A stretch of DNA of 64,000 nt from contig CALSOT010000002.1 of the NCBI GenBank assembly GCA_943788045.1, forward strand, positions 62,001-126,000, read 5' to 3'. The notes beneath the pieces are model-generated. The model was given only the letters and a program-made list of their open reading frames with translations, was not told the DNA's origin and ran no database searches. Within the stretch, counting starts at the first letter, position 1. Every line of letters begins with the position of its first letter. The stretch comes from an uncultured Polaribacter sp. Lineage in GTDB: Bacteria > Bacteroidota > Bacteroidia > Flavobacteriales > Flavobacteriaceae. Positions 56,046 through 64,000 of this stretch are shown here, in pieces. The position numbers and the translations under genes are program-made.

Positions 56046-56301
56046 TGTTTTTAAGTTTTGATTTCCCTTTAGATGCGGAAATCAAAAAATGTTACATTTT
56101 ATTTTAAAAGTAGTATAATAAAAGTAATATCTACGAGGAATTGTTCTTTGATGGTTTTACGATAAGCTAAATTTACAATTTTGACTTTAACTTGATGTTC
56201 TTTTAAGTGCAAATTTTAAATTTGGAGGGCTTTGCAGACAAGCCTGAAATATTGGGTAAAACACGGAAGCCCTTATTATTTATTCGCGGTGTTATCAAAT
56301 G

Positions 56302-57759
56302 CTATTTTGAGATTATAAGTTTTTGTGTTTGATGAATACTTTTAGATGTAAGATAAACGAAATAGAGTCCGTTAGAAAGGTTGAGATTGAAGTTAGTTAA
56401 TCCTCTCATTGATTTTTTCGAGTACATAATTTTTCCATTAATATCATAAATTTTCATATTTAAATGATCATTTAAGTGTGTTTGAATAAAAAAGTTACCA
56501 TTTGATGGGTTAGGATATAAAGATCGATGTAAGAATGTATCTTGAATATTCTCTATGCTTAGAACTTGAGTAGTATTCCAATATGCTTTTGTTCCATTAA
56601 TATGACCTTGAGTAATTACATCCGTCAAATCATCACCATTAAAATCTCCTACTACACTTGCTGTAAGATAATCACCTCCGAAAATATCAGATTCTACAAA
56701 TTGGTTATTTCCTACATTCTCATATGCAATACTTAAAATATTAGGTAGCCCACCCATTTGAGAGCCCGTTATTATGATATCTTGATCGCCATCGTTATCT
56801 AAATCTGTAATTTCGTTAGACCCTAAAAACGTTTGTTGAAGATTCGTCGACTCTAATTTTGTAAACAGCCCGTTTCCATTATTTAAATATAGATTTGTAA
56901 ATGGGATAACAAAATTATTATCAGAACCAGACATAAGTATGTCCAAATCACCATCATTATCCAAATCATCGGAATCTATATCTTGGGCAATAATTTGTTC
57001 AAAAACGGAATTTGTGTCCATGCTAAAATTTCCATGTCCATCGTTTATGTATAATGCAACTGAGGCATTTTTATTTTGCTGTATACCAGATATTATAACG
57101 TCAAGGTCTCCATCATTCTCAATATCTATCAATTTCAAAGAGCTAAATTTAACTGCTGTAAAAGCTGTACTTCCCATTGCTGTGAAGTTAGCGGTGCCAT
57201 CGTTTAGATAGATGTCTGCAAAATAGTTATCACTCACGTCTGACGCTGAAATTATAATATCTAAATCTCCGTCCTTGTCAACATCCCCTATTGTTGCATT
57301 CCCATCAGCAAATTTAGGTAAAGAAGGATTCTGTTTTTTAGTAAACTCTCCTGACCCATTGTTTAAATAAATGTGTGTAAATGCGCCAATACCATTGCCA
57401 TTGCCAGAAAAGAATAAATCTAAATCCCCGTCTTCATCTAAATCTTTAAAAATTGTTACAGTATTATTTGCGATTGGAAATGGAACATTGCTGTCTTCTG
57501 TGAAATTACCACTACCATCGTTTAAATATAGTGCGGTAGCCGCTACAGGATTTGATCCTGCTACTAATAAATCAAGATCACCATCATCATCAATATCACC
57601 ACTGGCAAATGACCCAGCTTCGACATTAATTAAATTTGGTTGAGGATTTGCTAATGTAAAATCGATATTTTGCGAATAACTTATCGAATAGAAAAGAGTT
57701 GTCGTGATGATTGTTATAAATGCTCTCATTTTATAGGGAATATATGATAATTTAGACAA
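56302..57759 (-). CDS. FG-GAP/VCBS repeat protein with T9SS type A sorting domain
   Basis: Repeated DIDDDGDLDLLV/DLDNDGDLDI motifs; C-term YPNPSNGNFFIQ...LSNGLYFVYLTSKSIHQTQKLIISK. Confidence 0.9.
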   Translation of the reverse strand: MSKLSYIPYKMRAFITIITTTLFYSISYSQNIDFTLANPQPNLINVEAGSFASGDIDDDGDLDLLVAGSNPVAATALYLNDGSGNFTEDSNVPFPIANNTVTIFKDLDEDGDLDLFFSGNGNGIGAFTHIYLNNGSGEFTKKQNPSLPKFADGNATIGDVDKDGDLDIIISASDVSDNYFADIYLNDGTANFTAMGSTAFTAVKFSSLKLIDIENDGDLDVIISGIQQNKNASVALYINDGHGNFSMDTNSVFEQIIAQDIDSDDLDNDGDLDILMSGSDNNFVIPFTNLYLNNGNGLFTKLESTNLQQTFLGSNEITDLDNDGDQDIIITGSQMGGLPNILSIAYENVGNNQFVESDIFGGDYLTASVVGDFNGDDLTDVITQGHINGTKAYWNTTQVLSIENIQDTFLHRSLYPNPSNGNFFIQTHLNDHLNMKIYDINGKIMYSKKSMRGLTNFNLNLSNGLYFVYLTSKSIHQTQKLIISK

Positions 57760-57767
57760 TATTTGCT

Positions 57768-57819
57768 AACGTTCTGTGTATAATGCGTATCCTAAAGGGT
57801 ATGCAGTATACACCTTGTT
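57768..57819. repeat. Junction J1
   Basis: AACGTTCT-GTGTATAATGCGTATCC-taaa-GGGTATGCAGTATACAC-CTTGTT. Confidence 0.75.
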
Positions 57820-57849
57820 CTGGGACGTTTTTTTTCTATTAGAGTGAGG

Positions 57850-62839: not shown

Positions 62840-63316
62840 GGCAACTGGCATTTTTTTCAGAGCTTTATTTAATTCATTTTCTCTTTGTGTCCCAATCACA
62901 ATTTTTTTTCCATTTTTAAGTTCAATTGCTAACCCTTTATTTCCATTTATATTATAAACAGTTCCGTATTTACTTCCAAGTCTTATGCCGTAACCTACAA
63001 ATCCATAATTTACAATTTTCACGGATTGTATTTCACTCCATTGAATATTCTTTTTCACAAATGGAATAAAACGCATCTTAATACCGTCATCATTTATTTC
63101 TGAAATTAAAGTCATATACCAATTAAAATATATAAACCCGAAAACTCCAATAGCAAAAAATACCATTCCAACATCTGACATTGGTTTATTTCCAAATTGT
63201 TCACCCAAAATTATTTGTGTGAAAAAACCATAAACAGCGATAGTTCCAAGACCGATTAAAATTAGCCAAAACCACCATTGAGTAAATTTTTGTCTTTCTT
63301 TAAATATAATTTCCAT
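62822..63316 (-). CDS. Membrane protein with PH-like C-terminal domain
   Basis: 2 TM-like segments then KNIQWSEIQSVKIVNYGFVGYGIRLG. Confidence 0.6.
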   Translation of the reverse strand: MEIIFKERQKFTQWWFWLILIGLGTIAVYGFFTQIILGEQFGNKPMSDVGMVFFAIGVFGFIYFNWYMTLISEINDDGIKMRFIPFVKKNIQWSEIQSVKIVNYGFVGYGIRLGSKYGTVYNINGNKGLAIELKNGKKIVIGTQRENELNKALKKMPVANTLQN

Positions 63317-63348
63317 AATATTTCTGCTGTTCGTTTTTGCTTGTTGCC

Positions 63349-63472
63349 AACGTGTTTTTATAAGGAAAGTTGCGTGTTTTAAGCACTGAAATTAACAAAT
63401 GAAACACTGATAGAAAGTCCGCGAGGACTTTCGTAAATTGGCAAAAACCAGTAATTTTTTTTATACGGTGTT
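63349..63472. repeat. Junction J7
   Basis: AACGTGTTTTTATAAGG...AGTTGCGTGTTTTAAGCACT...GAAAGTCCGCGAGGACTTTCGTAAAT...TATACGGTGTT. Confidence 0.85.
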
Positions 63473-63880
63473 GGCAATAGTATTTTTCACGATTATTTCA
63501 TTCAGTTTCTGTGTATCAGATTCCGAAATTTCCTTTAAGTCAAATGTTATTTTTTTTTCATTGACTTTTGTTATTGTTAATTTTTTTTCATTCAATTCAG
63601 TCTTTTTAATTTCGTCGAAACTCAAGGATTTTCCCATAAAAGAATTAATTCTGATAACAGCTCCTTTTTTGTTCCATTGAATGTAGTTTTTGAACCAAAA
63701 CATTCTACTGAAATAAAGTGCTTGAAGTAAAAATCCAACGCCACTTATTTTCTTATTTATTTTAGGATTTTCAAATGGAATAAATTCAAATATTCCAACA
63801 AGTAAAAATATTATTGATAAAATTAAAATTGTGATTAAAAACCAATTTTTGCTCAAATTATCAAAGTGTATTTTTTTCAT
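63461..63880 (-). CDS. Hypothetical membrane protein, PH-like
   Basis: 139 aa; 2 TM then IRINSFMGKSLSFDEIKKTELNEKKLTI. Confidence 0.6.
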   Translation of the reverse strand: MKKIHFDNLSKNWFLITILILSIIFLLVGIFEFIPFENPKINKKISGVGFLLQALYFSRMFWFKNYIQWNKKGAVIRINSFMGKSLSFDEIKKTELNEKKLTITKVNEKKITFDLKEISESDTQKLNEIIVKNTIANTV

Positions 63881-64000
63881 TTTCCCATTATTGATTTAAT
63901 TAACTTGTAAGAATATAAAATTCCGATTAGAAACATAATTCCACAAATCCAATATTCCGCTTTTGAATAATAACTTATTCCACCAAAAACTCCGAAGAAT
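63877..64000 (-). CDS. Hypothetical membrane protein, 5'-truncated by window edge
   Basis: Minus strand reads ...FFGVFGGISYYSKAEYWICGIMFLIGILYSYKLIKSIMGK*, stop overlapping next ATG (ATGA). Confidence 0.6.
   Translation of the reverse strand, partial: FFGVFGGISYYSKAEYWICGIMFLIGILYSYKLIKSIMGK

What the first reader, a model, noticed from the sequence alone, without database searches (positions are those of the whole stretch)
56291..64000. Candidate uncharacterised cassette array with integron-like architecture
Each of at least seven consecutive units starts (plus strand) with GTT plus a unit-specific sequence and ends with its reverse complement plus AAC: GTTATCAAAT..ATTTGCTAAC; GTTCTGGG..CCCAGAAC; GTTGCACAAC..CTTGTGCAAC; GTTAGCCATA..TATGGCTAAC; GTTGTAAAC..GTTTACAAC; GTTGTACGCA..TGCGTAGAAC; GTTGGCAAC..GTTGCCAAC. 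Complementarity is within a unit, not between neighbours, while the DNA between units is a shared repeat type (AACG.G(T)TTTG ... GGTGTT). In integrons this arises because the cassette's first bases derive from its own attC R' box, complementary to its R'' box. Genes are compact (start about 10-40 nt from one end, stop close to or inside the other) and all plausible genes are minus strand. The ends do not fit RYYYAAC/GTTRRRY and no tyrosine recombinase is visible, so this would be an integrase-less (CALIN-like) or a different cassette family.
Basis: partly seen in the sequence, partly recalled or inferred. Interest (0 to 1): 0.93.

Follow-up and report, generated by a model that had tools for sequence, protein, structure and literature searches.

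The report
Hidden integron family in Bacteroidota
The stretch is part of a row of movable gene cassettes like those of integrons, but the enzyme that goes with it, found elsewhere in the same genome and in about a third of sampled Bacteroidota genomes, lacks the protein part thought essential for integron enzymes, so a widespread gene-shuffling system seems to have gone unnoticed.

Summary
Window 56291-64000 is the distal half of a cassette array that continues to about 72.4 kb in window numbering. Each cassette runs GTT-N7 ... N'7-AAC with 9-10 of 10 complementary, unit-specific ends, separated by attC-like sites. The array begins at an ~85-bp attI-like site. A second array on contig C5 starts at the same attI, directly behind a tyrosine recombinase. 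This order recurs, with cassettes starting exactly at GTT, in 50 of 55 testable loci. Cassettes are exchanged at GTT: one 885-bp cassette (99.9% identical) sits in both arrays with unrelated flanks, and near-identical recombinase-attI copies carry different first cassettes. The stem covaries (15 of 16 pairs) and its mismatches are mostly G-T wobbles on the bottom strand, which points to single-strand folding as in integrons. It is not a canonical integron: the recombinase lacks the ~42-residue IntI insertion (I2), 163 of 167 cassettes fail GTTRRRY, and most sites lack extrahelical bases. In 300 Bacteroidota genomes these sites follow the I2-less recombinase (82%), not IntI (18% with IntI alone). 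I found no description of it in open-access papers. Best verdict: a new, widespread integron variant with an I2-less integrase. Activity is inferred, not shown.

The parts
56291..57770 (-). Cassette 1 of the window (distal end of the array): GTT..AAC unit with FG-GAP repeat / Por secretion-tail protein (56302-57759)
57771..57816 (-). Short attC-like junction (46 bp): GTGTATAATGCGTATCC / GGGTATGCAGTATACAC hairpin
   Evidence: not found by the covariance model
57817..59489 (-). Cassette 2: glucoamylase-like protein with Por secretion tail (57850-59451)
59490..59681 (.). Junction of 192 bp, divergent site
59682..60017 (-). Cassette 3: 336 bp, no convincing gene
60018..60027 (.). Minimal 10-bp junction (GGTTACCGGT) between AAC and GTT
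60028..61156 (-). Cassette 4: acyltransferase (Acyl_transf_3, 60055-61116)
61154..61341 (-). attC site (long class), 48 bits
61339..61871 (-). Cassette 5: hypothetical protein (61376-61858)
61869..61992 (-). attC site, 94 bits
61990..62715 (-). Cassette 6: two small genes (62004-62453, 62443-62682)
62713..62839 (-). attC site, 77 bits
62837..63351 (-). Cassette 7: DUF6141-like protein (62822-63316)
63349..63472 (-). attC site, 96 bits
63470..64000 (-). Cassette 8 (continues to 64077 in the genome); gene 63461-63880. The array goes on to an attI-like site at G000:C2:134412-134525 (72412-72525 in window numbering)

Best explanation
This is the distal part of an integron-type cassette array that uses an integrase family different from IntI. 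A tyrosine recombinase (C5:13407-14564, 385 aa; here in trans to the window's array) recombines an attI-like site with attC-like sites of circular cassettes, so that cassettes are inserted and removed at the GTT shared by all sites. The excised circle restores a long hairpin: a 10-bp unit-specific R stem, an asymmetric unpaired spacer and a ~16-bp L stem. The bottom strand of that hairpin, stabilised by G-T wobbles where the top strand has A-C mismatches, is most likely the single-stranded substrate. Shown by sequence: architecture, cassette exchange exact to GTT, covariation, strand asymmetry, association with the recombinase. Inferred: that this recombinase is the catalyst, that the substrate is single-stranded bottom-strand DNA, and that resolution works without the I2 helix.
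For: Unit structure in the window and beyond. Recombinase, attI and cassettes in fixed order: 69 of 80 named loci show the attI core behind the stop codon, and 50 of 55 arrays with enough sequence have cassettes beginning exactly at attI GTT. Exchange exact to GTT: the same 885-bp cassette, 99.9% identical, in both arrays with unrelated flanks; a metagenome contig with recombinase 99% identical to that of G000 and a near-identical attI, and a third strain at 95%, carry other first cassettes after the same GTT; shared cassettes in other genomes end at unit borders. Hairpin: 15 of 16 L-stem pairs have compensatory changes, one G-U pair kept in 36 of 37. Strand asymmetry: arm mismatches are bottom-strand wobbles rather than top-strand wobbles 216 to 20 (L) and 117 to 5 (R); bottom strand more stable in 109 of 116; own cassette start -30.2 against -23.9 kcal/mol with the neighbour's start. 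Survey of 300 Bacteroidota: sites in about 82% of genomes with the recombinase, with or without IntI, 18% with IntI alone, 33% with neither; recombinase against sites p=1.4e-18. Catalytic residues R242, K267, H331, R334, H357, Y366 invariant in the 22-row alignment.
Against: No activity, circle or strand exchange was measured. The site sequences are related by descent, so wobble and energy counts are not independent events. The window's array has no recombinase beside it, and three of its seven junctions are short or divergent. 58 of 300 genomes have sites without a detected recombinase (possibly lost or too divergent) and 18 the reverse. A site in a Polaribacter phage array was reported to work with IntI1 (PMC9892861), so canonical integrases may share some sites.
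Confidence: 0.83

Rival explanations
1. A canonical integron or CALIN whose cassettes are moved by an ordinary IntI, with merely divergent attC sites.
For: Overall layout, AAC/GTT core, a bottom-strand AACG run and bottom-strand bias are as in integrons (PMC2727003). HattCI found sites in the related phage P12002L and one recombined with IntI1 (PMC9892861); the sister phage P12002S carries the same site type.
Against: No IntI in this genome; IntI presence does not predict these sites, the other recombinase does; the recombinase lacks the IntI insertion; 163 of 167 cassettes miss GTTRRRY.
Confidence: 0.05
2. A cassette system as described, but recombining double-stranded sites at GTT; the hairpin has another role, such as a terminator or a replication signal.
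For: Xer relatives lack I2 and act on double-stranded sites; Foldseek and HMM matches include XerA and Xer enzymes.
Against: Unit-specific complementary R arms and wobbles largely confined to the bottom strand are expected only if that strand folds; a terminator in the mRNA would favour the other strand.
Confidence: 0.1
3. Dispersed repeats (REP, MITE or terminators) between genes without any cassette mobility.
For: Many single sites are scattered in genomes, e.g. C6:267489-267613 and C2:146588-146710.
Against: Unit-specific complementary ends, exact GTT-bounded exchange and fixed attI-recombinase linkage.
Confidence: 0.02

Closest known systems
Integrons (IntI / attI / attC; sedentary chromosomal integrons)
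   Same: Tyrosine recombinase gene next to an attI site; tandem cassettes of about one gene plus attC; GTT/AAC core; cassette ends complementary within the cassette; bottom-strand-favoured hairpin with an unpaired spacer; cassettes exchanged at GTT.
   Different: Recombinase lacks the IntI insertion with the I2 helix and often has a ~100-residue N-terminal extension; R boxes do not follow RYYYAAC/GTTRRRY; most sites have no extrahelical base and instead fixed bottom-strand G-T wobbles; in the Flavobacteriia loci recombinase and cassettes point the same way.
CALIN (cluster of attC sites lacking an integrase)
   Same: The window's own array has no integrase beside it.
   Different: It still has an attI-like site, and a matching recombinase with attI and cassettes lies elsewhere in the genome.
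Xer / XerA tyrosine recombinases
   Same: The recombinase core aligns with XerA (NF040815 209 bits, just under its cut-off; PDB 5hxy).
   Different: Linked to attI and cassette arrays; own Xer-like enzymes of the genome branch elsewhere.
attC clusters in Polaribacter phages P12002L/P12002S
   Same: P12002S carries six sites found by this model, with complementary unit ends.
   Different: Published as an ordinary CALIN in P12002L; no link to an I2-less recombinase was made.

Membership tests
Canonical integron | Tyrosine recombinase gene linked to an attI site and cassettes | tested here: met
   C5 recombinase, attI, cassettes in order; 50 of 55 testable arrays
Canonical integron | IntI-specific insertion with I2 helix in the integrase | tested here: not met
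   KGxxDR to HxLRH is 64-65 residues in the 23 members measured against 106 in all nine IntI; alignment with IntI1 shows the gap; TIGR02249 187 bits against cut-off 265
Canonical integron | R boxes RYYYAAC / GTTRRRY | tested here: not met
   4 of 167 cassettes fit
Canonical integron | attC forms an imperfect hairpin favoured on the bottom strand, with unpaired central spacer | tested here: met
Canonical integron | Conserved extrahelical bases in the attC L stem | tested here: not met
   90 of 116 sites best aligned without any bulge; 24 with one, on the 5' arm of the bottom strand
Canonical integron | Unit-precise gain, loss or exchange of cassettes | tested here: met
Canonical integron | Recombination of attI x attC by the integrase shown by experiment | not testable with these tools
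   no bench data for this recombinase
Canonical integron | Detected by the IntegronFinder attC model | not testable with these tools
   model not available; IntegronFinder reported no integrons in Tenacibaculum larymnensis (PMC10013915), but that genome was not examined here
CALIN | Two or more attC sites without a linked integrase | tested here: met
   No recombinase by tblastn on C2 42-166 kb; but attI-like sites are present there
Xer recombinases | Groups with Xer enzymes or reaches the XerA family cut-off | tested here: inconclusive
   209.2 bits against cut-off 220; tree separates it from the genome's own Xer-like enzymes and from IntI, new family 81/85 support

The most novel reading that the evidence does not exclude
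A second kind of integron, spread over the phylum Bacteroidota, recombines folded single-stranded cassette sites with an integrase that never acquired (or has replaced) the I2 helix; strand choice is written into the sites as fixed G-T wobbles and not as extrahelical bases.
Probability: 0.6. Interest if true: 0.92.

Novelty: new variant of a known kind. Interest (0 to 1): 0.85.

Why it matters
The I2 helix is described as the innovation that let integron integrases handle single-stranded attC sites and avoid a harmful second strand exchange (PMC7790495). A natural cassette system with the same architecture but no I2 makes that model directly testable. It also suggests that cassette capture in Bacteroidota is commoner than IntI-based surveys show: sites in 139 and recombinase in 99 of 300 sampled genomes. 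The same sites occur on plasmids of Tenacibaculum, Persicobacter and Flagellimonas and in a Polaribacter phage, so it may be a substantial route of gene exchange in marine bacteria.

Tried and rejected
A chain scan without flank constraints was too permissive (38 'units', null up to 27) and was replaced by attI-anchored chains and covariance-model-anchored tests. Rfam: no match. A recombinase remnant near the C2 attI: none by tblastn. IntI as the driver: rejected by the survey. Chance and plain-repeat explanations: rejected by the controls. DNA similarity of one attC to phage records: none, although the structural model finds such sites in phage P12002S. Papers: nine searches gave no description of a Bacteroidota integron with an I2-less integrase; subscription papers and preprints are not covered.

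Full report
WHAT IS THERE. The window is G000:C2:62001-126000 of a 2.9-Mb genome; its recombinase relatives are mostly Polaribacter. A scan for GTT-starting stretches whose first ten bases are the reverse complement of an AAC end shows a run of adjacent units from 56291 to past the window end: 56291-57770, 57817-59489, 59682-60017, 60028-61156, 61339-61871, 61990-62715, 62837-63351, 63470-64077, then 64198-64863, 64982-65489, 65610-66138, 66185-67260, 67378-67955, 68140-68975, 70128-70701, 70819-71583. Plausible genes are on the minus strand and varied: a glucoamylase-like protein, an FG-GAP protein, an acyltransferase, small unknown proteins.

THE MISSING RECOMBINASE. The genome has a tyrosine recombinase on contig C5 beside a second array of the same kind. 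Behind its stop codon lies a ~110-bp stretch and then the first cassette, GTTGTACGTAATTT. That stretch recurs on C2 at 72412-72525 in window numbering, directly before the first cassette of the window's own array (unit 71702-72417, ends 10/10), and once more at C2:151104-151196. I read it as attI. No recombinase or remnant lies next to the C2 copy. The window's array is thus an attI-headed array that would be served in trans.

THE SAME ORDER IN OTHER SPECIES. A profile of the recombinase found 80 named loci, mostly Flavobacteriia. In 69 a core like TATAAACAAGTT ends a conserved region behind the stop codon; TATAA and AGTT are the most constant part, although the core was searched for by its TATA and GTT. 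Of 55 arrays with at least 700 bases beyond it (the two G000 arrays included), 50 have a cassette that starts at that GTT, 167 chained units in all; block-shuffled sequence gives no unit in most of them. The sites between units measure 116-121 bases from AAC to GTT in most cases, with a second class of about 164-214.

MOBILITY. One cassette with its site (885 bp, 99.9% identical) is first in the C5 array and also in the C2 array; identity starts at GTT on one side and stops at GTT on the other. Cassettes shared with other genomes end at unit borders. A metagenome contig (L201) with a recombinase 99% identical to that of G000 and a near-identical attI has a different first cassette from the base after GTT, and L028 (95%) a third.

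THE SITE. On the bottom strand the L arms form a 16-pair stem; 15 pairs show compensatory double changes, and one G-U pair is kept in 36 of 37 sequences. The outer arms, which differ from cassette to cassette, pair over about ten bases, with a regular mismatch at position 11 that is a bottom-strand wobble in 91 of 116. Mismatches between arms are overwhelmingly of the kind that is G-T on the bottom and A-C on the top strand and not the reverse (216:20 in L, 117:5 in R); the bottom hairpin is the more stable one in 109 of 116, and is weaker with the neighbour's start. These counts include shared descent, but a pair fixed as G-U inside a stem that otherwise covaries freely is hard to explain unless the bottom strand folds. 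An mRNA terminator would favour the other strand.

WHY IT IS NOT A CANONICAL INTEGRON. The recombinase is 33% identical to IntI1 but lacks the inserted segment that carries the I2 helix; the spacing between flanking motifs is 64-65 residues in the 23 members measured and 106 in all nine IntI. It scores under the integron-integrase cut-off, matching in two pieces. A tree puts the 29 sampled members apart from IntI (IntI 100/99; new family 81/85, so its unity is only moderately supported). A fold search of a moderate-quality model (pLDDT 79.7) ranks XerA and the integron integrase 2a3v highest. Only 4 of 167 cassettes fit GTTRRRY, and 90 of 116 stems have no extrahelical base. According to PMC7790495, I2 docks those extrahelical bases; here both partners of that contact are missing together.

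HOW WIDESPREAD. In 300 Bacteroidota genomes a covariance model of the sites rings in 139 and the recombinase in 99. Sites occur in about 82% of genomes with the recombinase whether or not IntI is present, in 18% with IntI alone and 33% with neither; recombinase against sites gives odds ratio 11, p=1.4e-18. The genomes are not phylogenetically independent. Between successive model hits, 46 of 66 units have complementary ends, against 6 of 81 junction controls.

WHAT IS KNOWN. Integrons have been reported from Bacteroidota (PMC8618304, PMC2426708), as expected from the 86 IntI-bearing genomes here. A set of sites in Polaribacter phage P12002L was called a CALIN and one of two tested sites recombined with IntI1 (PMC9892861); the sister phage P12002S holds six sites of the present type. 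I found no account of the I2-less recombinase or its attI. Not shown here: catalysis, circles, strand use, and whether IntegronFinder sees these arrays.

Noticed in passing
window 60018-60027: Junction of only 10 bp (GGTTACCGGT) between two cassettes; a 10-bp junction also occurs in L106. Minimal site or deletion product?
   Followed up: no
G000:C2:151104-151196 (89104-89196 in window numbering): Third attI-like copy, followed by GTTGGCACC and a small gene, with no complementary cassette end found and no recombinase beside it.
   Followed up: partly
L281:38001-40622 (Polaribacter phage P12002S): A phage described as lytic carries six sites of this type with complementary unit ends, among methyltransferase and small unknown genes.
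   Followed up: partly
CP116298, CP116296 (Tenacibaculum finnmarkense), NZ_AP025294 (Persicobacter), NZ_CP092416 (Flagellimonas) plasmids: The attC-like repeat occurs on plasmids, so the cassettes may travel on them.
   Followed up: no
L187/L188 (G329), L189/L190 (G192), L192 (G184): A second layout: a shorter recombinase (about 282-319 aa, no long N-terminal extension) that points away from its cassettes, as in class 1 integrons.
   Followed up: partly
loci L028-L107: Many contigs end inside or just behind the first cassettes, so assemblies probably break at these arrays and hide them.
   Followed up: no
L024:14904-14978: tRNA-Asp gene just upstream of the recombinase.
   Followed up: no
300-genome survey: 26 genomes carry both the I2-less recombinase and a canonical IntI.
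   Followed up: no
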